Shown here: positions 6,647 to 26,207 of the stretch, piece after piece
How the letters are laid out: each line of letters opens with the position of its first letter
Position numbering within the stretch: position 1 is the first letter of the stretch
Origin: Fidelibacterota bacterium
Lineage (GTDB): Bacteria > Fidelibacterota > Marinisomatia > SCGC-AAA003-L08 > TS1B11
DNA length: 63,271 bases
Assembly: GCA_020354025.1 (NCBI GenBank)
Contig: CP070638.1
Coordinates: 2,452,879 to 2,516,149, forward strand
Direction of reading: 5' to 3'
The notes under the pieces: generated by a model
Told to the model about the DNA's origin: nothing
Databases searched by the model: none
What the model saw: only the letters and a program-made list of their open reading frames with translations
Translations under genes and position numbers: made by a program

Positions 6647-6668
6647 CTGCCCCCCCCGACCGCCCCGC

Positions 6669-7031
6669 TCACTTGATACCGGCCGCCGGCTCCTCACCCC
6701 TTGACGGAACTATACAGATGAACTTGAATTCTTCGTTGGACGTATTTTTGAATTGGTGCATCTCGTCATCATTGACATAGATGTAATCACCAGCACTTAA
6801 CGGGTGGCTATTTTTATCGGCGTCGATCAGTGCACCGATCCCGCTTAATACCAGGCCTAAATGAGGATACCCATGCTGGTGATAGGGCGATGCGGCACCG
6901 GGCTCCAGGTCGAAGTGCCGCAACACCATTTCGTTGCTGCCGTCATCAGGACCAATCACTATGTGCTTCGTGATGCCTTCAGTACCGGCGAAATCGACAA
7001 CCCGGCTATCTTCGAGTCTTCTGATGATCAT
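6669..7031 (-). CDS. Small cupin-domain protein
   Basis: This is a single-domain cupin of 120 residues. Cupin motif 1 is seen as PYHQHGYPHLGLVLSG (two His and a Gly-rich end) and motif 2 as GDYIYVNDDEMHQFKN (the distal His). These residues normally hold a divalent metal. Without neighbours in a pathway the substrate cannot be named; such proteins include isomerases, dioxygenases and sugar- or acid-binding sensors. It converges with the deiodinase-like gene, with only 22 bases between them. A frame for cupin family membership is clear; function is not. Confidence 0.8.
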   Translation of the reverse strand: MIIRRLEDSRVVDFAGTEGITKHIVIGPDDGSNEMVLRHFDLEPGAASPYHQHGYPHLGLVLSGIGALIDADKNSHPLSAGDYIYVNDDEMHQFKNTSNEEFKFICIVPSRGEEPAAGIK

Positions 7032-7131
7032 GGTTCTTCCCCTGAGTCAATTTTAGGGGGTGAAGCTACATCGGATCGGGTGGCAGTATCAATGAATGAC
7101 GAAGCGGGTACTTTATCCCGGCGGTACCACA

Positions 7132-7152
7132 AGTCCCGTCAACGGCGGGATT
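7132..7152. repeat. GC-rich intergenic palindromic repeat
   Basis: The core CCCGTCAACGGCGGGA is a short palindrome and a member of the repeat family also seen near 11.9, 14.9, 17.7, 18.3 and 19.5 kb. Confidence 0.5.
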
Positions 7153-7310
7153 GAAGCAGATTGATGGACTTAGAATACTTCGGTGCTACCAGTCGTATGA
7201 TGTTGATGGTAGAGAGAGCTACGGAAGCTCTAAAATAAGCCTTGGTAGTAGGAAATGTCTCTCTTAGTTTCTCGCCTAAACTTCCCGAGATTCTAAAGAC
7301 CTATAGATAC

Positions 7311-10220: not shown

Positions 10221-11869
10221 GGCTTGCCTTCTCTTCTGTGCTGGTTGCTGGCGTGCTCCTGGCAGGGGAGCTGCCAGGGACCAATCCCGCCCGGACAGCT
10301 ACTGCCGGTGCGTATTTCACCCGCGTGAAAGGGAATCATGCTCTGGGCATAAATCCTGCTAATCTCGGGTATTATGGGAAACCTCTCATGCTGGGCAGGA
10401 CGGAGGAGGCTATTATCTCCGACGGGGCAGGCGCCGCTCAGGATTACTATTCGGTGCAACTTATCGCGAGTCCTGATAATAAGCTCGTGAAAAGTACGAA
10501 ACAGGTCTTTCATCGCCAATTTGGCACAGCCTTTCCATCGGCGATTATCATGGTGGACTCATTATACAAATTCCGGGTGGGTGATTTTACGGATCAGAAA
10601 AAGGCTGAAATTCTTCGGGATTCACTGGTGGCATACGGCTATAGCGATGCCTGGATCGTAAGGGAAGATCATCCCCTGGTAGAGCTTGATCCGGTACCAT
10701 ATTTCTCCATGACACTAGCCGGTATCAGTCTGAATGCCAGGAATAATGCCATTCATCCCAACTGGATCAACCAGCAGCTATTCGGGGGCCTTGATCTTCG
10801 GGATCCAGGTAAGAAAGACGAGTTTTTATCTGTATTCCCATCTCATGTTTGGAACATGAATTTTATGGCCGCTATGACTAGCCTGAGCTTTACTGTAGGC
10901 AATTTTGGTATGTCAATAGTTGAGCCAAAGGTGGTGTCCACCATGAATTTACCCACAGCTGTTATTGATGTGCTTTTCCGTGGCGTGAAATTTGATCAGC
11001 CGCGGGACCTTTCAAATATCAAAATGGATCTACTCGGAGTCGCTCCGGTGGCAGTTGCTTATGGTCGGCAGCTTGCATTACCGCAGTTAACGAAAATGGT
11101 TGACCGGTTTTTCGCCGGAGCAGGTGTGAATATTCTGCTCGGACTCGCGGATATGCATCTGGTATCCGAACAGCTGGATATAAGGACTACTCCTGACAGT
11201 ATTATGATTGAAGGCAGAACGAGAGTGGTTGCTAATGATGATCCGGAATCCTCAAGATCCCCTGTTCTGGGTGGCGGTTTGAGCCTGGACCTGGGTATTG
11301 CCATGGACATCAATCCTGCGCTAAGTGCCAGTCTTGCATTGAAGGATTTATTTGGACGCATAACATGGCCGGATAGATGTACTACGGTAAATGAATTCTC
11401 TATTCATCTGTCAGGTGAAGATATAGAAGATATTGCTGAGGACTACTCGAACCAACTGGACTCCCTCAAGCAGAGGTTTTCCGAATCTGATACATCATAT
11501 GCTTCCGGGACTGGCCGGACTGTGTACCCATCCCAATTCATCTTGGGTGCTTCGTATCGGGTCTTACCGGAGTTGACCATCGATGCCTCCCTCATCCACT
11601 ACCTGAACAATGACTACCTGGAAGATGCCACACCCCAGCTGTCACTGGGAATTGAATATGCACCAGCATCTGTTTTCCCGATGTATGCTGGTATCGGTTT
11701 AGGGGGAATGGATGGGTTTAAATGGGGTGCCGGATTCGCCCTGAACCTGGGGGCCTTCCAATGGAACCTGGGATTTGGGCAAAACGGTGGCGTGTTGAAC
11801 GCCGCCAGGGGAGTAAGTATCTCCACGGAGTTTCGTTTATTGCTTGGCCCCCCTGGCCCCGCACGGTAG
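10217..11869 (+). CDS. Outer-membrane barrel protein with internal SPOR domain
   Basis: This protein of 550 residues has an N-terminal signal peptide (MRLAFSSVLVAGVLLAG). A GNHALGINPANLGYYGKP segment is typical of DUF5723-like barrels. Residues about 77-150 look like a complete SPOR domain: DYYSVQLIASPDN at the start and LYKFRVGDFTDQKKAEIL with LVAYGYSDAWIV at the end. SPOR domains bind glycan strands stripped of stem peptides. The remainder (about 160-550) shows strand-turn patterns and a Gly/aromatic-rich C-terminal region expected for an outer-membrane beta barrel. The start codon overlaps the stop of the giant lipoprotein gene, so the pair probably works together. A SPOR inserted just after the plug-like N-terminus is unusual. 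Confidence 0.8.
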   Translation: MRLAFSSVLVAGVLLAGELPGTNPARTATAGAYFTRVKGNHALGINPANLGYYGKPLMLGRTEEAIISDGAGAAQDYYSVQLIASPDNKLVKSTKQVFHRQFGTAFPSAIIMVDSLYKFRVGDFTDQKKAEILRDSLVAYGYSDAWIVREDHPLVELDPVPYFSMTLAGISLNARNNAIHPNWINQQLFGGLDLRDPGKKDEFLSVFPSHVWNMNFMAAMTSLSFTVGNFGMSIVEPKVVSTMNLPTAVIDVLFRGVKFDQPRDLSNIKMDLLGVAPVAVAYGRQLALPQLTKMVDRFFAGAGVNILLGLADMHLVSEQLDIRTTPDSIMIEGRTRVVANDDPESSRSPVLGGGLSLDLGIAMDINPALSASLALKDLFGRITWPDRCTTVNEFSIHLSGEDIEDIAEDYSNQLDSLKQRFSESDTSYASGTGRTVYPSQFILGASYRVLPELTIDASLIHYLNNDYLEDATPQLSLGIEYAPASVFPMYAGIGLGGMDGFKWGAGFALNLGAFQWNLGFGQNGGVLNAARGVSISTEFRLLLGPPGPAR

Positions 11870-11911
11870 GCCCCGGATATACCCGCACCATCAAGATGCA
11901 TTTGTCCCGTT

Positions 11912-12010
11912 CCTAGTCCTGTCCGAAGGCGGGGCCACAAGTTCCGCTAACGGCGGGACTCCCGATCCCGCCAACGTCGGGACTCCCGATCCTGCCAACG
12001 GTGGGACAAT
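11912..12010. repeat. Palindromic repeat plus 24-base tandem repeat
   Basis: CCTGTCCGAAGGCGGGG at about 11917-11934 belongs to the dispersed repeat family. It is followed by two and a half to three tandem 24-base units beginning CGCCAACG(T/G)CGGGACTC (11945-11968, 11969-11992, then a partial unit to about 12010). Each unit contains a small CCCGCCAACG/CGGGA palindrome. No gene lies between 11870 and 12163. Confidence 0.7.
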
Positions 12011-12163
12011 CACGCTGCCATCCTCTCACCCACCAAGCGGTAAAAAGCGACCCTGAGCTTGCCAGAGGACGCTTGTCAGATGACCGTCTGATCTGCTAAC
12101 TTTCCAATGGCAGAGCCGGTCTGGCATCTTATCTTAAGAATATATTTACGCGGAGAATGGGTT

Positions 12164-13081
12164 ATGAAACGCAACTTCCTATTAGGGTTGGCTATTTTAG
12201 CCATCACGGTACCATGCATTTCATGTAGCGCGGGAGTAGTAGCCTTGCCGACCCGTGAGATGCAAACGGTCGGAGACGGTGTCAGCCTGCACCTGAGGAT
12301 CGCTGGTGATCCCGCTTCGGGTGAGGTGCTGATCGCCCTCCATGGGGGACCGGGCATGAACAGAGCCTACATGCTGAACCTGGAGCAACTGGCGAACCAG
12401 GAGCTGGCTGTGGTGACCTACGACCAGCGGGGTTCCGGCCTCTCCACCAGTCCAGCCGCCGAACCAGCTAACTATACCCTGGCAAAGCATGTCGCGGATC
12501 TTGAAGTTGTCAGGAAAACACTGGGAGTGGAGCAGGTACACTTCCTGGGACATTCCTGGGGTGGGATTCTGGCCCTGCAGTACGCCCTCGTGCATCCGCA
12601 GCGGGTGCAGTCACTTATCCTGGTGAACAGTGGCCCGCCTACCTGGGAGGGGATCATGGAGGCTCAGGCTTCCCTGGGCGCGCGTATCCAAGCACTCCAG
12701 CAGGCAGGTGTCCTCCAGACAGGCCAACCCCAGTCCGCCGGGGAAGCCCTGAAGATGGTCCTCCCCGCCTATTTCTCGGACCCTTCCTTCTGGTTCTCAT
12801 CCGAGAATGAAAAAGAACCGGTTTCTTTCAGTCAGACGGCCAACAGCCTGACCATGGTGGCTATCGAGGGCTATGATATCACCTCGGAGCTGGCCCGGTT
12901 GGACCACCGTGTGCTGATCCTCAGGGGCGAGGACGATCCCTTCGGCCGGCCCATGATCGAGGCCACGCGGTCAGCGTTGAAAAATGCTCGGGTGGAAATG
13001 GTGGAACTGGAGCGTTGCGGCCACTTCTGGCACGAGTGCCCGGATGAATTCTTCGCCCGGGTGCGCGCCTTCCTTGACTGA
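12164..13081 (+). CDS. Alpha/beta hydrolase, prolyl-aminopeptidase-like (S33), lipoprotein
   Basis: I choose ATG 12164, which has a GGAGA site and gives a lipoprotein-type signal (MKRNFLLGLAILAITVPCISC); the frame is open to 12107. The product is 305 residues. The alpha/beta hydrolase core is clear: HGGPGMNRAY (oxyanion region as in proline iminopeptidases), DQRGSGLS, nucleophile elbow GHSWGG, catalytic Asp in LRGEDDPFG and catalytic His in RCGHFWHE. A variable cap domain lies between about residues 165 and 230. It is probably an envelope-anchored peptidase or esterase. S33 membership is well supported by the HGGPG and GHSWGG pair; the substrate is not known. Confidence 0.85.
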   Translation: MKRNFLLGLAILAITVPCISCSAGVVALPTREMQTVGDGVSLHLRIAGDPASGEVLIALHGGPGMNRAYMLNLEQLANQELAVVTYDQRGSGLSTSPAAEPANYTLAKHVADLEVVRKTLGVEQVHFLGHSWGGILALQYALVHPQRVQSLILVNSGPPTWEGIMEAQASLGARIQALQQAGVLQTGQPQSAGEALKMVLPAYFSDPSFWFSSENEKEPVSFSQTANSLTMVAIEGYDITSELARLDHRVLILRGEDDPFGRPMIEATRSALKNARVEMVELERCGHFWHECPDEFFARVRAFLD

Positions 13082-13148
13082 CCCTGAGTGGTAGCCTGTC
13101 GCTCCCCGTTATCGCGATCCGCTGGCTGAGGCTGCCCGGGACCCGGTG

Positions 13149-13790
13149 CTAGGCGGCCGCCTTCGTATCCTGGCGCACCTTTGCATAGTGCCGGCGGGAT
13201 TTCACCCGGTTGCCGCATGTCTCCATGTCACACCACTTCCGGCTGTGGTTCTTGCTCTTGTCCACGAACAACCACGTACAGTCGCCGCCGTTGCATTGGC
13301 TGATCTTGTGGACCTCGTCTGTGGTGAGAAGCTCCGCCGCGGAGCGCACCACCGGCCATAAGACCGCTTCCAGATCGAAACCTCCCGCCTGCCAGGCCCA
13401 GCCGAATCCCTCCGGTCGGCTCACAATGTGAACCTGCGACTGCACCCGCGTCAGGATGCGGTTCAGCTGGTCGAGATTGGTGGTGGAAGGACGCTGGTCC
13501 TGGGCGATGGCGGCGAAGATCTGGTAGATCGTCGCTCGCAAGCGCTTGGCCTTGCGCAGGGCCGCCTCCGCCGCGCCCCGGTCCCTGGATGCCCTCACTA
13601 GCAGCTGCTTTGCTTCATCCCCACCAATGACCTGCACTTTCTCGGCCCAACGCACCAGGTCGGTATAGTCCAGCAGGCTGTCACCCGTATCTTCCGCCTC
13701 ATAGCGGTCCACGGTATTGGTGAATTCCAGGCACAGCCGCCCACCGGCCGTCTCGGCCAGGATGTCACTCTCTCGGTCATTTACGAGCAT
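13149..13790 (-). CDS. CGNR zinc-finger / ABATE-domain protein
   Basis: This protein of 213 residues has an N-terminal ABATE-like domain (GRLCLEFTNTVDRYEAED at the start) and a C-terminal CGNR zinc finger: C-N-x-x-D-C, about 15 residues on KWCDMETCGNRVKSRRHYAK. The family is thought to contain DNA-binding transcription regulators of stress genes. The 147-base gap before the divergent small gene at 13938 holds two inverted repeats that could be its operators. Confidence 0.9.
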   Translation of the reverse strand: MLVNDRESDILAETAGGRLCLEFTNTVDRYEAEDTGDSLLDYTDLVRWAEKVQVIGGDEAKQLLVRASRDRGAAEAALRKAKRLRATIYQIFAAIAQDQRPSTTNLDQLNRILTRVQSQVHIVSRPEGFGWAWQAGGFDLEAVLWPVVRSAAELLTTDEVHKISQCNGGDCTWLFVDKSKNHSRKWCDMETCGNRVKSRRHYAKVRQDTKAAA

Positions 13791-13810
13791 TACTGGTCCC
13801 CTCCAATATC

Positions 13811-13879
13811 CTAACCAGCAAAATAAGTATTGCTAGTTAGTATTTGCCCTATTAAATTCTAACCGTCTATTAGAATTTA
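13811..13879. promoter_or_regulatory. Two inverted repeats between divergent genes (candidate operators)
   Basis: One palindrome is perfect: TAAATTCTAA (13853-13862), seven bases, TTAGAATTTA (13870-13879). The other has one mismatch: CTAACCAGCA (13811-13820), ten bases, TGCTAGTTAG (13831-13840). Both lie in the AT-rich spacer between the CGNR gene (start 13790, minus) and the small gene at 13938 (plus). Autoregulation by the CGNR protein is an inference. Confidence 0.55.
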
Positions 13880-13937
13880 GAAAGTTATAGACAGCAAGTC
13901 AATGGTAGACTCGGGCACAAACAGTAAGGAGGCAGTC

Positions 13938-14129
13938 ATGATCAGGTTCATCAGCAGACTCTTAGGGCGGACCGGCCGTAATAATCCGAACGGCAAGCAG
14001 GGTACCGTCAAGGACGATCCCTTGAAAGAGCCCCGCGGCGGCAGGCGGCCCTCGTTGAAATGCCGGAACGGCAACCTGAGCGACGGACCCCTGCGCGCCA
14101 ATCAGGTGCCCTGGATAGCCATCCGCTGA
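13938..14129 (+). CDS. Small basic protein, unrecognised
   Basis: The product has 63 residues. A near-consensus ribosome site (AAGGAGG at 13926-13932) precedes ATG 13938, which is why this start is preferred to 13902. It is rich in Arg, Gly, Asn and Pro after a short hydrophobic start (MIRFISRLLGRTG). No family is recognised. It lies divergent from the CGNR regulator, next to two palindromes. Confidence 0.4.
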   Translation: MIRFISRLLGRTGRNNPNGKQGTVKDDPLKEPRGGRRPSLKCRNGNLSDGPLRANQVPWIAIR

Positions 14130-14350
14130 GCATCCCAGCCGCCGCTTCCATTCCCCACCATAGATCGGACTTCTGCCGCGTTCATGCATTTGGGAAACGT
14201 AACGGGATAGATACAGTTGCTCTCCGGCTTCTGGTCCATTATGCATGCCATACGACAAAAGTAAAAAATAAACTTGGGAGAAAAGCCTATGACATATATA
14301 TTGAGATCTAGCTATTTTACGCAACTGAACTCAATTAGGAGGAATATCTT

Positions 14351-14857
14351 ATGATACAAAGCCTCGAAAAAAACGGTTGGGTAAAGAAAATCAGATCCTT
14401 AACGCTGGCAGGTTTGCTCTTGGTACCTTTATCCGGTATGCTCGCACAAGAGTTGGAGGTCCAGCAGCAGCAGCAAGAAAAAGATTATTATCACGAGGGT
14501 AAGACTCAAGCGCAAGCTGACTACACCGGTGACGCAGCCTTTAGCTGGGGATTGAAGACAGGTGTTGTATGGGGAGCAATAACCTGGGCAGCCGTCGTCA
14601 AGTATGAAACGGGTTTGGTAGTTTACTTTGCTGCAGCAACACCTCCTGTAGCCGGTTACTGGCTTCTGGATAAAGATGAAACGGCTCCGGCACATCTCAC
14701 AAGTAATCTGACAGCACCGCAACAAAGAGATTTCAGACTTGGATACAAAGTAGGTATATGGGACATAAGAAAGAAAAAATATAACAAAGGAACATATATC
14801 GGGGCAGGTATCGGGGCAGCAATAGGTATGTTAATAACCCTTGCCACAACGCAATAA
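14351..14857 (+). CDS. Secreted / membrane protein with glycine-zipper-like helices
   Basis: The product has 168 residues. A strong ribosome site (TAGGAGG) precedes the ATG. A signal peptide (LTLAGLLLVPLSGMLAQ) is followed by a Gln-rich patch. Two hydrophobic hairpins follow, and the C-terminus ends with a Gly/Ala-rich helix (GTYIGAGIGAAIGMLITLA) resembling a glycine zipper. A membrane or pore-lining role is possible. No family is recognised. Codon use is more AT-rich than the surrounding core genes. Confidence 0.7.
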   Translation: MIQSLEKNGWVKKIRSLTLAGLLLVPLSGMLAQELEVQQQQQEKDYYHEGKTQAQADYTGDAAFSWGLKTGVVWGAITWAAVVKYETGLVVYFAAATPPVAGYWLLDKDETAPAHLTSNLTAPQQRDFRLGYKVGIWDIRKKKYNKGTYIGAGIGAAIGMLITLATTQ

Positions 14858-14923
14858 TAATTATTCGCCTCGCCCCCAGCGCAAAACCCTGGCGGTGGTG
14901 GCGGTGCTTCTGGCTCCCCCGCT

Positions 14924-14940
14924 CCTAGCCCGTCCGAAGG
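14924..14940. repeat. Dispersed GC-rich repeat fragment
   Basis: CTAGCCCGTCCGAAGG is a partial copy of the repeat family seen at 11.9, 17.7, 18.3 and 19.5 kb. Confidence 0.4.
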
Positions 14941-15000
14941 TGCTGAGGTCTCTCCCCTCTTCCCCCTCTATTTGTAAGAGATAGGGTATCCGTCAGCTGC

Positions 15001-17457
15001 TTATTCGTAGCGCAACACCTCCGCCGGATTGGTATTCGATACGCGGTAAGCCCGAACACCGACAATCAACCAGGCAAAGATCATCACAACGACAGCGATC
15101 CTCAGGAAGAAAAAGAGTGACAAAGAGATCCTGTCGGTGAAGAAGTTCAGGTAAGCGCCCATGGCAAAGTAGGCCAGTGGGGCGGCAAGGATTACGGCGA
15201 TAAGTACGGGTCGGGAAATCTGCAAGGTGAGCATCCGAATCAGGCTAGCCACACTGGCACCCAGGACTTTCCGCACACAAATCTCCTTGGTCCTCCCGTC
15301 GGTGAGAAAGACAGTCATGCCAAAGAGGCCGACGAAGGCCAGTGAAACACCAATAATGGAGAATATGACCAGTGCAGTGTTTATCCCCTTAAAGATCGTG
15401 AAAGTTTCATTGAATCCATCATCCAGGAATTCCCGCTCGATAGGATATTCGGGAAGTACACGATCCCAGACAGCATCGATCTGGCGGAGCGTGCTCGGCA
15501 AGTCCTCCGTAGTAACGCGGATCGAGGCGATTTGGGGCACTTCTTCAGGCATGATGAATGCAATGGGTCGTATCTGATGGTGAAAACCGAGAAAATTCAC
15601 ATTACTGGTAACACCCGCGATTCTATAGGTCACATCGGATGCATCATCACCAACCTCATAAAAAAACTGACCGACAGCATCTTCCGGCGATTCGTACCCA
15701 AAAGCAGTGACGGCTCTCATATTTACGACCACGCTCACTGTCGACTGAGCATATTCATTATCCTCATTCAAGCGATAGGCGTCCTCACCATACTCAATTG
15801 ATAAATGCCGACCAGCCAGGAGATCCAGATCGTAGGTTTCGGCGAAGTCCTCACCAATGCTTATAAGCTGCATATCGACTTTACGGCTTTCATCACCCGA
15901 AACGGGTGAAACCCGCACCAGCGACTGCCGTTGCTGGAATGGTACCTGGCTGCTGATAGTGACAAATTCAACAGCGGGGATAGCCTGCCATTCGGTGCGC
16001 AGGACATCATAGTGCGGCGCGATATTGGGGTTTGACATGCGGAATACATTTACAACATGATCCCGATGATAGGTGAACGCCCCGGATTGCAGTTTCCGGT
16101 TTTGAGCGAAGGTAATAATGACGGCTATGGCCAGTACAATAGACGACGTATATTGAACGACCAGCAGGATGTCTCGCATCACATTCCGCTTGCCGGCACG
16201 GCCGCTTTCACCCCGCAGGGCATCAGTAATCTTGGCCCTGGAAATAACCAGCGCGGGGTATCCCCCAGCGAACAATCCGGTCACCAGCATCAGCACCAGG
16301 AGACCACCCAGGGTCGCCGGACTACTGAAGAGTTGGAAAGCTATCGGCCGACCGATCTGTTGGCCGATGACCGGGACTATCAGTTTCACCAGCACCGCCG
16401 CGATTATCAATGCGAATAAGGCAATGGCAACACTTTCAACGAGAAACTGGTAGACAATCTGTCCCCGCGAAGCACCGATCGACTTGCGAAGACCCACTTC
16501 GCGCAGCCGGCTCATTCCACGGGCTGCCGCCAGGGTCATGTAGTTCAGGCAGGCAATCAGCAGGATTATCAGACCAAGGACCCGAATTGCCGCCATGGCG
16601 GGAATTCCGGTGGCTTCCCAGATCAAGAGGTTCATGTTCCGCAGAGGTCTCAGTCCGAAGCCGGAAGTGAGCTCCTTAATGTCGTCATTCAGGTATTTGT
16701 CATAAATCGTACGCAGGCGCTCTTCGAATTCCGGGGCGGTACCACCCTCTGGCAGCAGAACGTAGGTAAGGTTCTCTGATTTTAGACTCCTCCAGTTGCC
16801 CTGTAGATCGACATCATTGATACGGCTCAGGGCGCCGGTGGAGGCCACCATTTCGAACGAACCTTCCGCTGTGAACGAGCTCATAAAGTGACTGTTCGGG
16901 GGCAGGTCACGAAACACGCCGGTTACCTGGAGTTCATGTTTGGTCTCTACCGTTATCACTTCCCCAACAGGGTTAGCATCACCAAAATATTTTCCGGCCA
17001 TCGATTCTGAGAGTATTACTGAGGTTGGATTCTGCAAGGCATTGCTTGCATTGCCGTGGATAAACTCCAGGTCGAAGATGTCCAGGAAATCGGGATCCAC
17101 GAAGCGTAGCGACTCATAGAATTTCTTGTCACCCGATTTAACCAGCTGTTCCGTTCCAAATATTCGCGCGGATTTTTCGATTTCCGGGATATCGACAGGT
17201 AACAGTGGTTGGACCGCCGTGAAAACCGCGTCGCTGCTCTTTACGCCGACACCAGATTCCGGTGTGAAATGTATGTAAATGGTGTAGATGCGCTCTGATT
17301 TGGCGAAAAAGTTGTCAAAATTCTCTTCATACTCGGCGATGACCAGCACCAGGATAAAGACCGTTAAGCCGACTGCCAATCCGAGCACCTGAACAAACGT
17401 GGAGGATATCCTTTTTTTCAGGTTCCTCAGCGCTATGATCCAATAGTTATAAAACAT
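15001..17457 (-). CDS. FtsX/MacB-type ABC transporter permease, orphan
   Basis: This protein of 818 residues has an N-terminal membrane helix (MFYNYWIIALRNLKKR, then VLGLAVGLTVFILVLVIAEY) and a MacB-like periplasmic core. A first group of FtsX-type helices lies about residues 275-440, including ARGMSRLREVGLRKSIGASR. A second periplasmic region and a C-terminal FtsX block (about 675-818, with GRTKEICVRKVLGASVASL) follow. The duplicated layout is typical of the eight-helix permeases common in Bacteroidetes-like bacteria. The family exports peptides, lipoproteins or toxic compounds with an ATPase partner, but no ATPase gene adjoins this one. It ends with NPAEVLRYE, a common ending in this family. 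Confidence 0.9.
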   Translation of the reverse strand: MFYNYWIIALRNLKKRISSTFVQVLGLAVGLTVFILVLVIAEYEENFDNFFAKSERIYTIYIHFTPESGVGVKSSDAVFTAVQPLLPVDIPEIEKSARIFGTEQLVKSGDKKFYESLRFVDPDFLDIFDLEFIHGNASNALQNPTSVILSESMAGKYFGDANPVGEVITVETKHELQVTGVFRDLPPNSHFMSSFTAEGSFEMVASTGALSRINDVDLQGNWRSLKSENLTYVLLPEGGTAPEFEERLRTIYDKYLNDDIKELTSGFGLRPLRNMNLLIWEATGIPAMAAIRVLGLIILLIACLNYMTLAAARGMSRLREVGLRKSIGASRGQIVYQFLVESVAIALFALIIAAVLVKLIVPVIGQQIGRPIAFQLFSSPATLGGLLVLMLVTGLFAGGYPALVISRAKITDALRGESGRAGKRNVMRDILLVVQYTSSIVLAIAVIITFAQNRKLQSGAFTYHRDHVVNVFRMSNPNIAPHYDVLRTEWQAIPAVEFVTISSQVPFQQRQSLVRVSPVSGDESRKVDMQLISIGEDFAETYDLDLLAGRHLSIEYGEDAYRLNEDNEYAQSTVSVVVNMRAVTAFGYESPEDAVGQFFYEVGDDASDVTYRIAGVTSNVNFLGFHHQIRPIAFIMPEEVPQIASIRVTTEDLPSTLRQIDAVWDRVLPEYPIEREFLDDGFNETFTIFKGINTALVIFSIIGVSLAFVGLFGMTVFLTDGRTKEICVRKVLGASVASLIRMLTLQISRPVLIAVILAAPLAYFAMGAYLNFFTDRISLSLFFFLRIAVVVMIFAWLIVGVRAYRVSNTNPAEVLRYE

Positions 17458-17882
17458 GTCAAATTTCTCACAGAACGTGAATTACTAATGCTGGCACATG
17501 ACCATCAGCTGTGCCGCCGTGAGCAGATTGCGTGGAATGACTACTGCTCAGCTGCAATCCTATTTTTTTTTAGACCAGGCTAAGGGCGGTGTGGTTGTCA
17601 ATGCTGCAAATATTAATCGATTGTCAGCATGCAGATAAGGGTACTCCTGTCCGTCCTTCCCCTCACCTTAAGAGCCTGCCCCGTCCGCAGGCAAGCCGCA
17701 GCCCTAGTCCCGTCCTGAATCCCGCCAACGGCGGGGCCGAAGGCGGGGGCGAAGCCCCGTCTGGAGACGGGGCGGGGCGGGGCGGGGAGTTGCTGCACCT
17801 GGAACTTTTCGCCTCCCCACTAGTCTAATCCGCAATAACTCATCACAATTCACTGGTACAATCAACCAAAAAGAGGAACAAG
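17458..17882. other. Intergenic region with dense GC-rich repeats
   Basis: This is a 425-base gap between divergent genes. Bases about 17675-17790 hold several overlapping copies of the dispersed palindromic family (CCCGTCC, CCCGCCAACGGCGGGG, CCGAAGGCGGGGG, CCCCGTCTGGAGACGGGG), the densest cluster in the window. A T-run at about 17565-17573 follows a weak TGAGCAG/CTGCTCA stem. I see no gene in it. Confidence 0.6.
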
Positions 17883-18248
17883 ATGGACCTGAAAGATAAG
17901 CTGGACCTCCTGTGGAAGTACCTCCTCCTGGCCGTTATACTGACCTTTGTTATTCTGCTGTTCGTGTGCCGCGCTGGACATTGCGATCGCTCCACCCACG
18001 TCTGCCTCGGCAAGCCGCATGCGGGTATGGCCTTCATGGGCAAGGGCTGTATGGGCATGGGTCACGGCAAAGATATCAAGGTGGAAAAGAAAGTCACCAA
18101 TGGCGATACCACCGTGGTCGTCTGGGTGGATGGCAAGCAGGTTGACAACCCCGAGGAATACCTGAAGCAGATCAAGCACGGGTGCGCGTCGGGCGAGCAT
18201 ATGGAATATATCATGCAAGGCCACCACGGCAAGCAGGACAAGGATTAG
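17883..18248 (+). CDS. Small single-pass membrane protein with Met/His/Cys-rich segment
   Basis: The product has 121 residues. An N-terminal membrane helix (LLLAVILTFVILLFVC) follows a short charged start. After it comes a segment dense in Cys, His and Met (CRAGHCDRSTHVC, then HAGMAFMGKGCMGMGHG), a composition suited to binding soft metals such as Cu(I). The C-terminal part is hydrophilic, with VVVWVDGKQVDNPEEYLKQI and a His-containing end. A GAGGA site precedes the ATG. No family is recognised; metal binding is inferred from composition only. Confidence 0.7.
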   Translation: MDLKDKLDLLWKYLLLAVILTFVILLFVCRAGHCDRSTHVCLGKPHAGMAFMGKGCMGMGHGKDIKVEKKVTNGDTTVVVWVDGKQVDNPEEYLKQIKHGCASGEHMEYIMQGHHGKQDKD

Positions 18249-18280
18249 GACCGCCCGCTATTACGCCCAGCCGAAGCCTT

Positions 18281-18313
18281 AGTCCCGTCCTGAACCCCTG
18301 CCGAAGGCGGCAA
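18281..18313. repeat. Dispersed GC-rich repeat, downstream of the island
   Basis: AGTCCCGTCCTGAACCCC and the following TGCCGAAGGCGGCA form a copy of the palindromic family. It lies immediately outside the 3' end of the AT-rich island. Confidence 0.6.
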
Positions 18314-18334
18314 GGTCACTATTCTGGAATAATA

Positions 18335-19402
18335 TTAAATACCACCTAATCTACCTGAAATTACGTTTATCCTTTCCCTTAGCTCCTTCCTGAATTTTTC
18401 CGGTTCTTCCTTGAAATTATAAAAAGTGTATCGAAGTGGAGAAGTATCAAATGGTATTATTGGCTTACCCTCCTTGTCTAAGTCAGTTGCTGAGTTGATA
18501 GTTACAAGAATTTGTTTTTCCTTAGCAAGAGCATATCCAAGCTCATAATAGCAGTTTGGACGATGGTGAGTTAAGTCAGCGATGATGAATTTACAATTCT
18601 CTATGTAATCGTATATATCCTGATGAATACTCCTAAGCGGTTCTTCCTCTTCCTGAAAAATTAGCTTTAATCCGAATTCATCCTCCACAATCGGTCGATA
18701 TACATTATTTGTAAGGGAGAGGATATCGCTCTGGCATGCAGCAATCAGGAAAACGCTATTACTGAATCTTAAATAAGTCTTCTCAAATTCAACCTGGCCT
18801 CGCTCTGTCAGAGAACGGATTTTAGGATGCACTGGATGTATTTCAATAATACCAGCTGTTTCATAGTATGTTAATGCATTGCTTATTGCATGATCACTAT
18901 AGTGACATATCTCCATTAATTTCCCAACATCGAAACTCCCTCCTTGACTTGAGAGAACGTAGGCGCTTTCAAGTGCTATCCTCCTAGCAATCTGATTTTC
19001 CTTTATAACTGAGGATAAATCCTTAGAATAAATCCACACTCCACTCTTACTTGATATGCTGATTGTACCTTTGATTCTGGGATCTATGCCATCGCGGTAT
19101 AGCTTGAACGTCTGAGATTCATCGCACGGTAGATGACCTTGTAATATCATATCATAAATAATAGATAGACATGCATGTTCCGAATTCTTATGCAATAGAT
19201 CCGCATCATGTGGATCTTGGCCTAAAGGCTTTACATATTGTTCGGTAATCTCCACATAGTGAACAACTGAAAGCGCCTCAGAATCGGTAAGTGAGAAGTC
19301 ATACCTATAAAGTTTTCGGCTTGAATCTGGAAATAAAGCAGATTGTTCGACTAATAGTTTTAATCCATCATTTGACCGATATCTATATTTGCTAGCCGCC
19401 AT
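18335..19402 (-). CDS. Winged-helix protein with C-terminal deoxyribosyltransferase/TIR-like domain
   Basis: The product has 355 residues. The N-terminal ~125 residues are unrecognised. Residues about 140-215 look like a winged helix (FDVGKLMEICHYSDHAISNA, then a wing and RSLTERGQVEFEK). Residues about 220-345 have the fold pattern of nucleoside 2-deoxyribosyltransferase-like or TIR-like domains: NSVFLIAACQSD, a helix with YIENCKFIIADLTHHRPNCY, then YELGYALAKEKQILVTI and IPFDTSPLRYTFY. Such domains act as sensors or NAD/nucleotide hydrolases in anti-phage systems. It lies 243 bases downstream of the ParA-like gene, with a dispersed GC repeat between, so it may be separately transcribed. The function is inferred. 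Confidence 0.65.
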   Translation of the reverse strand: MAASKYRYRSNDGLKLLVEQSALFPDSSRKLYRYDFSLTDSEALSVVHYVEITEQYVKPLGQDPHDADLLHKNSEHACLSIIYDMILQGHLPCDESQTFKLYRDGIDPRIKGTISISSKSGVWIYSKDLSSVIKENQIARRIALESAYVLSSQGGSFDVGKLMEICHYSDHAISNALTYYETAGIIEIHPVHPKIRSLTERGQVEFEKTYLRFSNSVFLIAACQSDILSLTNNVYRPIVEDEFGLKLIFQEEEEPLRSIHQDIYDYIENCKFIIADLTHHRPNCYYELGYALAKEKQILVTINSATDLDKEGKPIIPFDTSPLRYTFYNFKEEPEKFRKELRERINVISGRLGGI

Positions 19403-19521
19403 AACTGTTTTTACTCCATTTTGATGCGAGTTTTTTTATTTGACGGAATGACATGCAAATTGCTAATACTTTACTTTTGATCTTCCCTTATTAATAACCT
19501 GTTGCATCAACTCGGTGTAAT

Positions 19522-19545
19522 CCCCAGCCCCTCCCGAAGGCGGGG
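19522..19545. repeat. Dispersed GC-rich repeat inside the island
   Basis: CCCCAGCCCCTCCCGAAGG followed by CGGGG lies between two AT-rich genes, so its composition stands out. It belongs to the same family as 18281-18313. Confidence 0.55.
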
Positions 19546-19645
19546 TGTCCTCCCTTCTTCTACCATGGACTTCGTTCGTCCTATTATAGGTCGCGGCTAG
19601 CTTTGAGAGGCACCCAGGTTTATTAGCGTGTAAAATACTTTTTGT

Positions 19646-20695
19646 TCATCTACTATTCTTTCTTTCACTGAACTCCTTATCAGAACCCATTACAAAACTT
19701 CTAATAAACGGCACAAACAATAATCCGACAGCATATATAAGTAGCAGGTCAAGCCAATGAATACCTCCTCTTATCATTATTCTATCAACAATAAAGTATG
19801 CGGTGATGAACAGCGCACCAGTGGCAATCAGCATCCGATCGATACGACTGGCGAAAGTAGAAGATTTAACTGGCCAAATCCTAGATTCGGGGAATCGCTT
19901 GAGATCAATAACCGTTGGAATTTCCTCTCGGTGAGCTAGCTTATTCCACGCCTCAGAAATTCCATACGCATATCTCGTTGAGTTCGCTTCATTCCAAAAC
20001 TCTGGTTTCCCAAAAGATTCAAACAAATCTACATCAAACGGTATCTTCCCAACAATGTCATAGTCGGCCCTGATTTCCTCCATACTCTCTCTATAGTCTC
20101 TTAGAGTTTTAACGTATCTGACCTTGTTCATAATAGTGTATACCTTTGCAGTATTTGAATCACGCAGATGCCTAAGAAGATTATCGTTTGTGCTCCGGGC
20201 AACTGGATCAGCTTCAGACACTGAAAGGGATAGATCTGAAAGTTCACAACAACGTATTATCATATCATCAATTCCTGCTCTATTATCGATAATAACGAAA
20301 TCATATTTCATATCCCTTAAACTAGTAAACAGCTCTTTTGTCCTTTCTTTACTGCTTCCGGTAGTATCCATGTATTCAAGATGCTCTTCGATCTTGGAGA
20401 CAGCAGGTATCAGATCCACCTCGAAGAAGCGTTCTCTTGCGAATTCCATGCTTTTTGATTCCCCACGCGTGAGTCCGAAGAAATCTGCAATTGTTTGTTT
20501 ATCAGTAATTCTCCGTCTTTCCTTTTTATATAGATAAAAGAAGTGAGTTAAGCCCCTAACAAAAGGATCGAGGTCAACGAGAAGAATGGACGAGCCTTCC
20601 TGCGCAAGAATTCTACCAAGAATTGCTACAAGCAAAGACTTTCCGGTTCCACCCTTGCCACTAACTACATTAATCAATACAGGTTTCTTTTTCAT
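19646..20695 (-). CDS. ParA/MinD-type ATPase with C-terminal membrane anchor
   Basis: The product has 349 residues. It begins with a deviant Walker A motif (INVVSGKGGTGKS, with the signature Lys before GG), then ILLVDLDPFVRG and a Walker B-like DFVIIDNRAGIDD. These mark the ParA/MinD/Mrp group of SIMIBI ATPases. After the ATPase core, residues about 280-335 form two hydrophobic helices (MLIATGALFITAYFIV and LLLIYAVGLLFVPFI), so it is anchored in the inner membrane. That is unusual, because MinD uses an amphipathic tail and ParA is soluble. It overlaps by four bases the small membrane protein gene before it, implying cotranslation. It does not adjoin parB, minC/E or partition sites. The context points to defence. 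Confidence 0.85.
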   Translation of the reverse strand: MKKKPVLINVVSGKGGTGKSLLVAILGRILAQEGSSILLVDLDPFVRGLTHFFYLYKKERRRITDKQTIADFFGLTRGESKSMEFARERFFEVDLIPAVSKIEEHLEYMDTTGSSKERTKELFTSLRDMKYDFVIIDNRAGIDDMIIRCCELSDLSLSVSEADPVARSTNDNLLRHLRDSNTAKVYTIMNKVRYVKTLRDYRESMEEIRADYDIVGKIPFDVDLFESFGKPEFWNEANSTRYAYGISEAWNKLAHREEIPTVIDLKRFPESRIWPVKSSTFASRIDRMLIATGALFITAYFIVDRIMIRGGIHWLDLLLIYAVGLLFVPFIRSFVMGSDKEFSERKNSR

Positions 20696-21042
20696 TTGAA
20701 CGCCTTCACAATTAATCCTATGAAAGTTAGGGAAGCGAGGATCAATGCTGATGGTAATGAAGAAGCAGCTAGGTCTTCAACTGAAGTTACTAGTTTATTA
20801 AACACGATAAAATGGTGGACGAGGATTACAATTGCACACGGGAGGAATCCCATAGCAAGTCTGAACCAAAACGATTCAGTGTTTCTTCTTTGTTTCGAAA
20901 ATCTGGTGTTTGTACCAATAACAAGATATGTAACTGCAATACCACACAGCCACATGAAAAACAGGCTGACTGCAATAACGGGTTGAGCAAGAAGAATTTC
21001 GAGTCCTTTTTGCTTCAATTCTTTTTCTGCTATGCATGCCAT
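20692..21042 (-). CDS. Small membrane protein, three predicted helices
   Basis: The product has 116 residues. Three hydrophobic segments are seen: QPVIAVSLFFMWLCGIAVTY, FRLAMGFLPCAIVILVHHFI and SALILASLTFIGLIVKAF. A purine-rich site (AAGGAAAGGA) precedes the ATG. Its stop overlaps the start of the ParA-like ATPase gene, so the two products are probably made together and may form a membrane complex. No family is recognised. Confidence 0.75.
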   Translation of the reverse strand: MACIAEKELKQKGLEILLAQPVIAVSLFFMWLCGIAVTYLVIGTNTRFSKQRRNTESFWFRLAMGFLPCAIVILVHHFIVFNKLVTSVEDLAASSLPSALILASLTFIGLIVKAFK

Positions 21043-21215
21043 ATTTCAATTCCTTTCCTTGAAAAACTGAATGCTATGCCTTGCCGTAGGTTACTCCCTT
21101 AATATTTTTCTATTCCTCTATTCCAGTTATTGCTTAATGTGTTTTCTCGCCACGTGTGTTCCTTTTAAACTTCATCCCCTATGGCCAGGAGACAATAGCC
21201 TCATCTCGTCCTTCT

Positions 21216-22478
21216 TTATATCCCCTCCCAAATTCTATCTTGAATACCCCTTCTAGCGCCAACACAATGAACATGTATCCTATCCTTAATATACTTGCGA
21301 CATTCTCGTATAAATTTAATTCTGTTAGGATCAGATCCTTCTCGTGTGATCACAATCATCTGCCGCTCTACGTTGGCATTCAACCATCGTTTCAGCACTT
21401 CATTTATATGTTCATCTCGGAAGGAGTACCCTATTGTCACCAGTAGTATACAATTCTCAATCCTTCGTCCAAAGGCTCTAAATAACTCGATGAAAGGTCC
21501 TTGAGCTGTTAGCTTATTTCCACTGCCAAATACAACAGCAGGTCTATAGCGATAACCTTTTCTAATATCTTCAATCTTTGCTCTCTGAATAATGTCATGT
21601 GGTATCTTATTTCTAGTTCTTTGATTTTGTTGAAGGTCCCAATCAACAGAGCCGTGTAGCTTTAGTAGCTCTATTCCATTTTTAGGTGGATCAATTACTC
21701 CAACCTGTGACCATGATGTGAGACCTGTTGCTACCTTAATGTCCATTTTTTCAGCGCATAGCTCTATTACATTGTCGTAATTCAAGCTAGCAATTGTAAC
21801 TACGTCACCTTGCTCCAAGGTTATTAGTGGCTCAATATATTTGATCTTTTGTTCATCCTCTATCCATACCATCTCAACACGAAGGCGTAGCATTGTATCT
21901 GCAGTATGTGAAAACGCTTCAGTTTTTCCCCTAAATGCTTCTTTTATCGAATTAAATATATTTTCAATCAGTTTCTCGAGGCTATGCTTGGCATGGAAAA
22001 TGTGAACTGATTGGCGCCGGCTAAAAGATCCTCCAAAGCCAGAGTTTTTATCTGTATCTATATCCCTGATTAAATTTTCTACCAGTTCCTTAAAGTCACT
22101 TTCTAACCGCCAACTATCTAATGAAATCTCATCTGATTTTTCTATCTCTTCAATCGTGGGAGACCAAGTCCCAACAAATGGCGCAATATCAAGTTCATTA
22201 CGATCTGCCAGCATCTCTACTGCAGAGAATAAGTCCTCAATGTTAATTCCAGCAAATGGGTCCCCTCCTTTCACCCCTCTTCTAAATTGCATACCTCCTA
22301 TTACGTACTTCAGTACCTTTTCTTCAAGTTCATATCTATAGCTTTCTTGGATTTTTTTCAATATAGTTTTTGTCATATCATTCGTCGTCGGAATGCCCGC
22401 ATCTACTGATGAACCTGCGCCTAATAGAAATACCGGTTTATCACCCATTTTTCGCTCAGCAGTTTCGAAATCTTTCAT
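21216..22478 (-). CDS. SIR2-like NADase domain protein
   Basis: The product is 420 residues if the ATG at 22478 is used (22448 and 22520 are alternatives; none has a strong ribosome site). SIR2 motifs are clear: FLLGAGSSVDAGIPTTNDMT (NAD loop), SLNYDNVIE, LLKLHGSVDW and a terminal TIGYSFRDEHIN. SIR2-like proteins of this large type (SIR2_2 group) mostly serve in anti-phage systems, where they deplete NAD+ and cause abortive infection. No zinc-binding CxxC pair is seen, as expected for this non-deacetylase group. It overlaps the 3' end of the HNH gene slightly, which suggests coupling. A 173-base gap separates it from the small membrane protein gene that follows. Confidence 0.85.
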   Translation of the reverse strand: MKDFETAERKMGDKPVFLLGAGSSVDAGIPTTNDMTKTILKKIQESYRYELEEKVLKYVIGGMQFRRGVKGGDPFAGINIEDLFSAVEMLADRNELDIAPFVGTWSPTIEEIEKSDEISLDSWRLESDFKELVENLIRDIDTDKNSGFGGSFSRRQSVHIFHAKHSLEKLIENIFNSIKEAFRGKTEAFSHTADTMLRLRVEMVWIEDEQKIKYIEPLITLEQGDVVTIASLNYDNVIELCAEKMDIKVATGLTSWSQVGVIDPPKNGIELLKLHGSVDWDLQQNQRTRNKIPHDIIQRAKIEDIRKGYRYRPAVVFGSGNKLTAQGPFIELFRAFGRRIENCILLVTIGYSFRDEHINEVLKRWLNANVERQMIVITREGSDPNRIKFIRECRKYIKDRIHVHCVGARRGIQDRIWEGI

Positions 22479-23349
22479 ACCTTGCACCAAGAAGCTCCCT
22501 ATCCGGCCACCATTCTTCATTCTTCGGCAAGGTCAGTCTTGAATGATGCATCCCCTGTAGACCATGCAGCAGCATGGGGCCGTCATATTCGTGTAACACG
22601 TCTTCTCTCACCTCAATTATATAATCCGGCGTGATTCCCAGTATAAAACTGTCAAACGCTGCGTGGTGTAACTTGCACAGGGCGATACCGTTATCAACAG
22701 TAGACCTGCTGTCCGGTTCCCGGTCGGCAATAATATGCGCTGCATCCAGCAGTTCTAGGTGCCGAAGGCGACACAGGGCACACTGGGATTGATATGCTGC
22801 CAGTACTCTTTCCCTGAAACTCCTCTGGTGCAATCTGGTCCTTACCGTAGTTGTCAGATACGCCCTTCGTGCTACAGTATCTTCGCTCACTTTGTCCGCT
22901 TCTCGTTGGTCAAGGACTGACAAGTCGTCCAAGGCCACCTTGAATGTCAAGCTTACCGGATCGTCCCCAATAATAAATACTGGCCATACAGCCAGATACT
23001 TACCAGGTAGAATACTATGAAGATAAATGAGGGGTGTGTTTGTACGAAGGGCCTCTCTCAATCCCACATTGTCCCGATGAGAGATATCAGTCCCCCGATA
23101 CCTGTAATGGAGGAAACCATCGTTTCCGAATTGGTCATCGTAAGGACCCTTGGTCGTGCTGGTGATGGAAAGCGGCAGATCAAGCAATTTGGGTTTAAAG
23201 ATTCCCTGCGGTGCGACGAGGGGTATGCGGTTGCCCTGAAATTCAAATCCTTTTCTCAACAACTCCCGTGGTAACACGTCACCATGAACACCTACCTGCT
23301 CACTGAACCATTCAAAGGCAGCCAGGCGGATTTCTAGGTCAGTGTTCAT
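22456..23349 (-). CDS. HNH endonuclease (restriction-like)
   Basis: The product has 297 residues. The C-terminal HNH module is clear: CALCRLRHLELLDAAHI, then DNGIALCKLHHAAFD, with metal-binding His and Cys. The upstream arm RRAYLTTTVRTRLHQRSFRE is typical of HNH_2-type nucleases. The N-terminal ~170 residues are unassigned and may recognise DNA. Proteins of this layout are often annotated as putative restriction endonucleases and found in defence islands. No methyltransferase gene adjoins it, so a modification-dependent enzyme is possible. Its base composition is less AT-rich than the four genes that follow, so it may have a different history. Confidence 0.8.
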   Translation of the reverse strand: MNTDLEIRLAAFEWFSEQVGVHGDVLPRELLRKGFEFQGNRIPLVAPQGIFKPKLLDLPLSITSTTKGPYDDQFGNDGFLHYRYRGTDISHRDNVGLREALRTNTPLIYLHSILPGKYLAVWPVFIIGDDPVSLTFKVALDDLSVLDQREADKVSEDTVARRAYLTTTVRTRLHQRSFRERVLAAYQSQCALCRLRHLELLDAAHIIADREPDSRSTVDNGIALCKLHHAAFDSFILGITPDYIIEVREDVLHEYDGPMLLHGLQGMHHSRLTLPKNEEWWPDRELLGARYERFRNC

Positions 23350-23492
23350 AGCTAATTATAATTTCAGCCAGAATGTACGCTGATTTACGACATTATATTA
23401 CTATAATATAGTGCGATTTGTGGCGTCCTTGGTGGTTTTTATGTTTCCTTATCTCCTCGTCCTCTACGTTTCCTTTCCTCTTGGCTGACGGA

Positions 23493-24452
23493 TCAATCAT
23501 CAATCATTTTCACGCTCCCGGTTTCTTCCCGGCCGCCTCTTCCGCCCCCCCCCTCCTTCCGCATCACCCGCGCCGTATGACCCAGGCTCGCAACTCCCGG
23601 AACGCTCCTGAGTCCCTTGTACTTCTTTCGCAGCTCCCTCAGCGCCTGCCGGTTGCCCAGGGCGCTCCGTACCCCGGCGAAGTAGTCCCGCATTCCCGCC
23701 ACCACCGCCATATCCCCCACCGGGCCGTGCCCCGGCACCACCGTAACGTCTTCCGGGAACCGGGCCAGCAGCCCCTCCAGCGTTGCCTGCCAGTCACCCG
23801 TGTGCGCCTGCCCTCCGAACGCCATCAGTACCGGGTGCCGGTCGGTAAACACCAGGTCGCCCGTCAGCAGCACCTTCCGCTGCCGGAAGTACACCACCAG
23901 GTCGTTCGGCGAATGGCCCCGGCCCGTATTGATCAGCAGGACCTCCTCGTTACCCATGTCGAGCACCAGCGAGTCCGCCACCGCTTTCGCCGGGTAGGGC
24001 TCCCCCCCGGCATAGGACTCCCGCCCGACGGGCTCCTGCCCAGCGTAGGGCTCCTGCCCGCCCTGAGCCTCCCCGTCCCCCGGCGCACTGCTGCCCGTCA
24101 GCACCCGGGCACCGGGATAGAGCTTGTTCCCCCCAACGTGGTCCAGGTGGTCGTGGGTGATAATGACCGTCACCGGCCGGCCGTCTGCCCGCGCTTCGAC
24201 CAGCGACCGCAGCCGCTTGGCGCCCCGGCCCCACTTCGTGTCCACCACGACCACCTCCTGCTCCCCGACGAAGATGGCGCTGTTGCCGCCGCCCCCGGGC
24301 ACGATTGTCAGCGCCGCGTCCACCTCCACCACCGCTGTCTCCAGCGCCGCTGTCTCCAGCGCCGCTGGCTCCGTCGCCACCCTGGCCGCACACCCCCAAC
24401 TCATCAGCGCGAGCGCCGCCAGGATAGTGATCATCTGAAACGTCTTGCTCAT
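23493..24452 (-). CDS. Metallo-beta-lactamase-fold lipoprotein
   Basis: I start it at ATG 24452, which gives a lipoprotein signal (MSKTFQMITILAALALMSWGCA); the frame is open to 24587, but that extension reads through a tandem repeat. The product is 319 residues. The MBL metal motif THDHLDHVGG is present, with further metal ligands at HSPNDLV (third His), GDLVFTDRH (bridging Asp) and PGHGPVGD. A Gly/Glu/Pro/Tyr-rich insertion with short repeats (about residues 145-170, AGQEP, GRESYAGGEPYP) sits between strands. It is probably a zinc hydrolase at the outer or inner membrane. The substrate is unknown; subclass B3 lactamases and quorum lactonases share the fold. Confidence 0.85.
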   Translation of the reverse strand: MSKTFQMITILAALALMSWGCAARVATEPAALETAALETAVVEVDAALTIVPGGGGNSAIFVGEQEVVVVDTKWGRGAKRLRSLVEARADGRPVTVIITHDHLDHVGGNKLYPGARVLTGSSAPGDGEAQGGQEPYAGQEPVGRESYAGGEPYPAKAVADSLVLDMGNEEVLLINTGRGHSPNDLVVYFRQRKVLLTGDLVFTDRHPVLMAFGGQAHTGDWQATLEGLLARFPEDVTVVPGHGPVGDMAVVAGMRDYFAGVRSALGNRQALRELRKKYKGLRSVPGVASLGHTARVMRKEGGGGRGGREETGSVKMIDD

Positions 24453-25001
24453 AATATCCCCCCCCCTAGACCTTGCCCCCTCCCTGTAACTAAAAACCCA
24501 GAACCCGAAACTAGAAACTTGAAACTTGTAACTATTTTTCGCGCACCTCGCGCACCAGGCGCACCACGCGCACCAGGCGAAAGACAAATACCCGTCGCCG
24601 CCTTATATTCCGGCGCTATGCAAATGCCGCCGCCATATCGCCTTGCCAACGCGCCCGCGACAGCGGCCCTGCCTTCCCTGCGTATGGACCGGGTAGCTCC
24701 ATATCATTCCTCATCCTCGTTCCGCCTCTCTGGCCTTCTTACCATTTTGCATTTTGCCGCCGGCCATCGTCGGGAAAAAACTTCAGGATGCAGAATTTTG
24801 TATGGGTTTTGTATGGATTTTGACGGTCCGGCAGTCACCACTTCAGCGGCAATCCGTTATCATCGATTTTTCATTTTGCATTTTGCCTCCGGCCATCGTC
24901 GGGAAAAAACTTCAGAGTGCAGAATTTTGGTGGGATTTTGCGGAATTTTAGGGTATCTCTCCGGTCTAGTTCCTGTTCTTCAATTTTGCATTAAGCAATT
25001 T
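24453..25001. other. Intergenic region with several short repeats
   Basis: This 549-base gap holds no convincing gene. Four tandem 9-base units of GCGCACCNN type occupy 24541-24576. A 63-base direct repeat (CATTTTGCATTTTGCC, CGGCCATCGTCGGGAAAAAA, then CTTCAG and GCAGAATTTTG) is present at 24743-24805 and 24872-24934. AT-rich CATTTTTCATTTTTCAATT sits next to the rmuC stop. Confidence 0.7.
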
Positions 25002-26084: not shown

Positions 26085-26207
26085 ACGCTATCTCCCTTGA
26101 TGGCGAGCAGGACTAAGCACGCTGATATGCCCGCTGCTCTATGCTGCAATGTAGTGAGGTATATTGCTGAAGGCTATGTAATCCGGGGGTCAAGGGGGGC
26201 TCGCCCC

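What the first reader, a model, noticed from the sequence alone, without database searches (positions are those of the whole stretch)
18335..22478. Candidate undescribed defence locus: SIR2, membrane ParA-type ATPase, small membrane partner and winged-helix/nucleotide-binding protein
Four minus-strand genes in visibly AT-richer DNA encode an NADase-type SIR2 protein, a three-helix membrane protein, a membrane-anchored ParA/MinD-type ATPase and a protein with a deoxyribosyltransferase/TIR-like C-terminal domain. SIR2 and TIR-like domains are established effectors or sensors of anti-phage immunity. A membrane-anchored ParA with a coupled small partner in such a locus does not match any system I can name. 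I infer a membrane-associated sensing complex that triggers NAD+ depletion.
Basis: partly seen in the sequence, partly recalled or inferred. Interest (0 to 1): 0.8.

Follow-up and report, generated by a model that had tools for sequence, protein, structure and literature searches.

The report
Membrane-anchored ParA pair in defence island
The locus is not one four-gene immune system: it is a stack of separate gene modules, and the one that recurs intact in unrelated places, including the accessory slot of P2-like phages, is an undescribed two-gene pair (a small membrane protein plus a membrane-anchored ParA-type ATPase) that probably protects against other phages.

Summary
The genes are as described: SIR2, three-helix membrane protein, ParA/MinD ATPase with a C-terminal membrane hairpin, and a protein with a nucleoside-deoxyribosyltransferase/TIR-like C-terminus, all at about 39% GC in a 54% GC window. 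A fifth gene, an HNH nuclease, overlaps SIR2 upstream. The island lies inside an 18-kb insertion absent from three relatives. The four-gene reading fails. The genes form three spaced units, and homologues of each occur without the others. The unit that recurs is the two-gene pair. It occurs alone in the S-V accessory slot of three P2-like phages (36% GC against 57%, antisense to the late genes, ATPase dN/dS about 0.02), in a contig from another phylum, and, as a more distant relative, near bSEFIR and a type II restriction enzyme. A sister phage carries retron VI in the same slot. The HNH-SIR2 unit resembles short-Argonaute-associated SIR2 but has no Argonaute; the last gene shares only its effector domain with a CBASS protein. 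No PADLOC, Pfam, NCBIfam or PHROG model describes the pair beyond its P-loop domain. Best reading: a mobile, membrane-bound two-gene phage-interference module lying next to unrelated NAD+/nucleotide-targeting defence genes. Defence function is inferred from context only.

The parts
20692..21042 (-). small membrane partner (116 aa, three predicted membrane helices); first gene of the pair
   Evidence: ORF; hydropathy; homologues directly upstream of the ParA gene in L024/L025/L026 and L102
19646..20695 (-). ParA/MinD-family ATPase (349 aa) with deviant Walker A (SGKGGTGKS) and C-terminal membrane hairpin; overlaps the partner gene by 4 nt (ATGA)
   Evidence: profile E<1e-140 in the core members, 3.5e-22 in G049
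21216..22478 (-). SIR2-family protein (420 aa; alternative start 22520) with intact GAGxSxxAGIP, LNYD and LHGSVDW motifs; second gene of the HNH-SIR2 unit
   Evidence: (PADLOC Aga_SIR2 class II E=1.9e-44)
22456..23349 (-). HNH endonuclease (297 aa), overlaps the SIR2 start; full-length homologues stand alone elsewhere
18335..19402 (-). protein (355 aa) with N-terminal region of unknown fold (winged helix possible) and C-terminal nucleoside-deoxyribosyltransferase/TIR-like domain (about 232-351)
21043..21215 (-). 173-nt gap between SIR2 and the pair, with a good ribosome-binding site (AAGGAAAGGA) before the partner gene
19403..19645 (-). 243-nt gap between ParA and the last gene, holding a GC-rich TTCG-loop hairpin
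6647..25001 (.). lineage-specific insertion between nitroreductase and rmuC, within which the AT-rich island (18335-23349) lies
   Evidence: the two flanking genes are adjacent in G004, G005 and G009

Best explanation
The locus is a small defence island of three independent units: HNH-SIR2, the membrane-protein/ParA pair, and a single gene with a deoxyribosyltransferase/TIR-like effector domain. The pair is a self-contained mobile two-gene module. Inferred mechanism: the ParA-type ATPase is fixed to the inner membrane by its C-terminal hairpin with the ATPase domain in the cytoplasm. ATP-driven dimerisation at the membrane gates or recruits the three-helix partner, and an infection-linked signal at the membrane (for example DNA entry) switches the complex so that it blocks entry or damages the membrane of the infected cell. 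Shown: gene content, operon overlaps, conservation of the pair and of its ATPase motifs, mobility, and defence-slot contexts. Inferred: anti-phage activity, the trigger, and the effect on the membrane.
For: The pair has the same order and 4-nt overlap in the window, three P2-like phages and genome G462; G049 keeps the order, with a 29-nt overlap. Core members score E<1e-140 against at best 2.4e-18 for FlhG/MinD proteins and form a 99/98 clade. The P-loop, DLDxFxRGLT and DxRAGxD motifs are invariant in that core. In the P2-like phages the pair sits between genes S and V, antisense to the late genes; this slot is empty in three relatives and holds a retron VI pair in a Yersinia phage (RT_VI E=2.6e-104, HTH_VI 6e-36). 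Its GC is 0.36 against 0.57 for the phage backbone, and ATPase dN/dS is about 0.02 with dS near 2, so it is a kept, imported cargo. In G049 it lies near bSEFIR (E=4e-82) and a type II restriction enzyme (E=3e-113). The window island lies in an insertion absent from three relatives.
Against: No functional data. Only three well-supported lineages of the pair were found, plus one distant one. G049's ATPase has a long branch and 93/92 support, and its small partner is not recognised by the partner profile. Accessory genes in a prophage slot can serve other purposes. The G462 contig begins 262 nt upstream of the pair, so its context is mostly unseen.
Confidence: 0.55

Rival explanations
1. The four (or five) genes are one defence system: the membrane ParA complex senses infection and triggers SIR2 and the deoxyribosyltransferase/TIR-like enzyme to deplete NAD+ or nucleotides.
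For: Same strand, same low GC, adjacent. In G049 a TIR-type protein (bSEFIR) also lies upstream of the pair.
Against: 173- and 243-nt gaps with a separate ribosome-binding site and a hairpin. The pair occurs without SIR2 or TIR genes in P2-like phages. Homologues of SIR2, HNH and the last gene occur without the pair. In G049 the bSEFIR gene is separated from the pair by a DUF5615 gene and about 1.3 kb.
Confidence: 0.12
2. The pair is a lysogenic-conversion module with a non-immune role, for example in envelope function, host fitness or prophage maintenance.
For: Found in a prophage accessory slot, antisense to the late genes. ParA/MinD relatives mostly position cargo or act in the envelope (general knowledge). 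Strong purifying selection.
Against: Also found in chromosomal islands with SIR2, HNH, bSEFIR and restriction genes. The same phage slot holds a retron in a relative.
Confidence: 0.25
3. The ParA protein is a plasmid- or chromosome-partition ATPase left behind by a mobile element.
For: Best PHROG match outside its own family is ParA-like partition protein phrog_164 (E=2.9e-16).
Against: No ParB-like gene among its neighbours in the window, the phages, G049 or G462. It has a membrane hairpin and a constant membrane partner. No plasmid in PLSDB carries it at 80% coverage.
Confidence: 0.04

Closest known systems
MinD / FlhG (ParA/MinD superfamily; PDB 1ion, 4rz2, 1hyq)
   Same: Deviant Walker A fold, membrane-linked ATPase
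   Different: MinD and FlhG bind the membrane reversibly by an amphipathic helix (general knowledge); this family has a C-terminal two-helix transmembrane hairpin, its own DLDxFxRGLT motif and a constant small membrane partner
P2-family lysogenic-conversion genes and the P2 gpA-gpQ defence hotspot (old, tin; PMC9122126)
   Same: Small accessory genes carried at a fixed site in P2-like phages
   Different: Different site: the pair sits between S and V, where P2 has a different 261-aa antisense gene; it is not among the anti-phage systems described in the passages read
bSEFIR (PADLOC)
   Same: TIR-superfamily defence gene found about 1.3 kb from the pair in G049
   Different: The window has instead a deoxyribosyltransferase/TIR-like domain with another N-terminus; no sign that bSEFIR needs the pair
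SPARSA / short-Argonaute-associated SIR2 (PADLOC Aga_SIR2 class II)
   Same: Best SIR2 relative by profile, E=1.9e-44
   Different: No Piwi/Argonaute gene next to it; coupled to HNH instead
Cap17-type CBASS effector (Moellerella plasmid, L123)
   Same: C-terminal Nuc_deoxyrib_tr-like effector domain
   Different: Window protein lacks the Cap17-like N-terminal domain (PF18178), and no cyclase gene is among the island genes

Membership tests
ParA/MinD P-loop superfamily | Deviant Walker A (KGGxGK[ST]) and ParA/MinD fold | tested here: met
   SGKGGTGKS/T conserved; CbiA E=4e-14 over cut-off; Foldseek hits are CooC, FlhG, MinD, ParA, though the model has pLDDT of only 54.5
KGGVGR-motif variant ATPase (NF047398) | Curated NCBIfam score of 90 bits | tested here: not met
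   47.8 bits
ParABS partition system | ParB partner encoded next to ParA | tested here: not met
   No ParB-like gene in four contexts by gene reading; neighbours are defence, phage-structural or housekeeping genes
Thoeris | ThsA with SIR2+SLOG (or macro) and a ThsB TIR protein | tested here: not met
   SIR2 protein has only SIR2_2 in Pfam; TIR_2 match of the last gene is E=0.074, below cut-off
SPARSA (short Argonaute) | Adjacent Piwi/Argonaute gene | tested here: not met
   No Argonaute among the neighbouring genes scanned
SIR2-HerA | Adjacent HerA helicase | tested here: not met
   Neighbours are HNH and the membrane/ParA pair
CBASS | CD-NTase cyclase with effector | tested here: not met
   No cyclase among the island genes in Pfam or PADLOC
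Any PADLOC defence system for the pair | Full-length match to a PADLOC model | tested here: not met
   ParA's best match is only the P-loop of PDC-M28B (best stretch residues 9-43); the small partner has no match
Functional anti-phage system | Reduces phage plating | not testable with these tools
   Needs a wet-lab test

The most novel reading that the evidence does not exclude
A membrane-anchored ParA-family ATPase with a three-helix membrane partner is an undescribed class of phage-exclusion or abortive system, carried by P2-like phages and by bacterial defence islands in several phyla, which uses a ParA/MinD-type ATPase cycle at the membrane for immunity.
Probability: 0.42. Interest if true: 0.75.

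Novelty: new variant of a known kind. Interest (0 to 1): 0.5.

Why it matters
I know of no immune system built on a ParA/MinD-type ATPase cycle, and the literature searches made here found none. If the pair works in defence, it would link bacterial spatial-organisation ATPases to immunity at the membrane. It is small (about 1.4 kb), present in P2-like phages related to well-studied ones, and therefore quickly testable in laboratory E. coli. It also points to the S-V site of P2-like phages as a second accessory slot that can hold defence genes.

Tried and rejected
Pseudomonadota could not be surveyed with the genome search because no centre genome was available. Surveys were empty in three phyla (58, 249 and 251 genomes), found 1 of 296 in the phylum of G245 (a Paludibacteraceae genome), and 2 of 245 in the window's own phylum. 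Two weaker hits (G292, G304) were FlhG-like genes in flagellar clusters and were rejected by context. DNA and protein searches found no copy of the phage version in complete E. coli genomes, INPHARED or PLSDB. A viral scan with the small partner alone found nothing. The structure model of the last gene (pLDDT 36) was discarded. Promoter and terminator scans were at chance level. No Rfam match in 17400-23700. Literature searches found no ParA-based anti-phage system. The SIR2-HNH combination was not seen in five HNH homologue neighbourhoods.

Full report
Check of the observation. Pfam finds SIR2_2 (E=1.7e-11), CbiA/ParA (4e-14) and a sub-threshold Nuc_deoxyrib_tr domain (1.2e-5). PADLOC finds Aga_SIR2 class II (1.9e-44) for SIR2 and 'Effector TIR' (1.5e-16) for the last gene, and little beyond a P-loop match for the ParA protein. 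The SIR2 motifs GAGSSVDAGIP, LNYD and LHGSVDW are intact (read from the sequence). The ParA protein keeps SGKGGTGKS and ends in two hydrophobic helices; the small protein has three. A fifth gene, an HNH nuclease at 22456-23349, overlaps the start of SIR2.

Operon anatomy. There are three units: HNH-SIR2 (overlapping), the pair small-membrane-protein/ParA (ATGA overlap, 4 nt), and the single last gene. They are separated by 173 nt and 243 nt. The second gap and the DNA downstream of the last gene each hold a copy of a GC-rich TTCG hairpin, CCGCCTTCGGSNGGGG. The promoter-like and terminator-like scans were no better than shuffled DNA, so the units are inferred from spacing and overlaps.

The island is an insertion. 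In three members of the same family (G004, G005, G009) rmuC and a nitroreductase gene are adjacent. In this genome they are 18.4 kb apart (window 6646 to 25002), and the island lies in between. The SIR2 gene is the only SIR2_2 member found in its genome.

The pair elsewhere. A profile from the window ParA and one relative found three strong matches in viral contigs. All three are P2-like phages in which the small membrane protein and the ParA gene sit between tail genes S and V on the strand opposite to the late genes. In the phages the pair has 36% GC against 57% for the rest, ATPase dN/dS of about 0.02 (dS near 2, so rough) and partner dN/dS of 0.11-0.17. It is kept under selection and looks imported. 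A fourth strong member lies in genome G462, beside rsfS and gyrA. A more distant one is in G049, same class as the window genome, with the same gene order. On a tree with MinD/FlhG-like proteins, the window, G462 and phage proteins form a 99/98 clade. G049 joins with 93/92 on a long branch, and an HMM built without it scores it at 3.5e-22 against 2.4e-18 for FlhG. Its small partner is not recognised by the partner profile. G049 is therefore a probable but unproven member.

Context of the pair. In G049 the upstream TIR-type gene is bSEFIR (E=4e-82) and a type II restriction enzyme (3e-113) lies downstream. The phage S-V slot is empty in phages 10W, FSL SP-004 and 500465-1, holds a 261-aa antisense gene in P2, a retron VI pair in a Yersinia phage (2.6e-104 and 6e-36), and a gene with a weak LmuA match (2e-6) in a Klebsiella phage. 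It is not the gpA-gpQ hotspot described by Rousset et al. (PMC9122126). In the readable contexts the pair has no SIR2 gene beside it except in the window.

The other genes elsewhere. SIR2 homologues on plasmids stand alone (Arthrobacter, Curtobacterium) or follow a Piwi gene (Hymenobacter); a distant SIR2 in the same phylum sits next to a HerA-like gene (HerA by reading the sequence). HNH homologues with 31-41% identity over their full length stand alone or beside a type I restriction system, never with SIR2 in five neighbourhoods. The last gene's C-terminal domain matches the effector of a CBASS operon on a Moellerella plasmid, where it is fused to the Cap17-like N-terminal domain beside bacHORMA and AAA genes. 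Each unit is modular.

What it is and how it may work. The island is a cluster of independent defence-type modules. The new part is the pair. A ParA/MinD-type ATPase permanently fixed to the membrane, with its ATPase domain in the cytoplasm, and a three-helix partner would suit a membrane switch: ATP-dependent dimerisation changes the state of the partner, which then blocks DNA entry or depolarises the membrane of an infected cell. The anatomy, conservation, mobility and contexts are shown here; immunity, trigger and output are inferred. The last gene and SIR2 would act separately, by analogy with known NAD+- and nucleotide-degrading effectors (established knowledge of these families, not tested here).

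Comparison. By fold and motif the ATPase belongs to the ParA/MinD superfamily (the structure model is only moderately reliable, pLDDT 54.5). It fails the KGGVGR model cut-off, and no ParB was seen. It matches no PADLOC, PHROG, NCBIfam or Pfam family beyond the P-loop domain. The locus fails defining features of Thoeris, SPARSA, SIR2-HerA and CBASS.

Limits. No literature hit described such a pair, but only open-licence papers were searched.

Noticed in passing
window 6647-25001; L143, L144, L126: 18-kb lineage-specific insertion between nitroreductase and rmuC, empty in three relatives (the two genes lie within about 60 nt of each other there); it also holds an ABC permease, an alpha/beta hydrolase, a CGNR regulator, a cupin, a DUF5723 protein and a metallo-beta-lactamase-fold gene.
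   Followed up: partly
L139:2272-3496; L135, L134, L137, L138, L142: The S-V site of P2-like phages is an accessory slot distinct from the known gpA-gpQ hotspot: empty in several phages, retron VI in a Yersinia phage, a different antisense gene in P2.
   Followed up: partly
window 18295-18310 and 19528-19543 (- strand): Two copies of a GC-rich TTCG-loop hairpin (CCGCCTTCGGSNGGGG) flank the last gene; 15 of 100 shuffles gave two or more matches when two mismatches were allowed.
   Followed up: no
L123:2867-6911 (Moellerella wisconsensis plasmid pW51-a): CBASS operon whose Cap17-like protein carries a deoxyribosyltransferase-like C-terminal domain, a possible effector variant.
   Followed up: no
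L021:10880-17502 (G049): Genes that read as selA and selB are separated by a methyltransferase, a type II restriction enzyme and a PIN-domain gene, suggesting a defence insertion in the selenium operon.
   Followed up: no
window 237-809 and 2352-2849: Two ORFs beginning with nearly the same sequence (MRSRIALSTSHIKHI...) on either side of another gene; possibly a duplicated segment.
   Followed up: no
window 23418-27110 (+): A 1230-aa open frame antisense to the metallo-beta-lactamase, rmuC and neighbouring genes; looks like a spurious ORF of GC-rich coding DNA.
   Followed up: no
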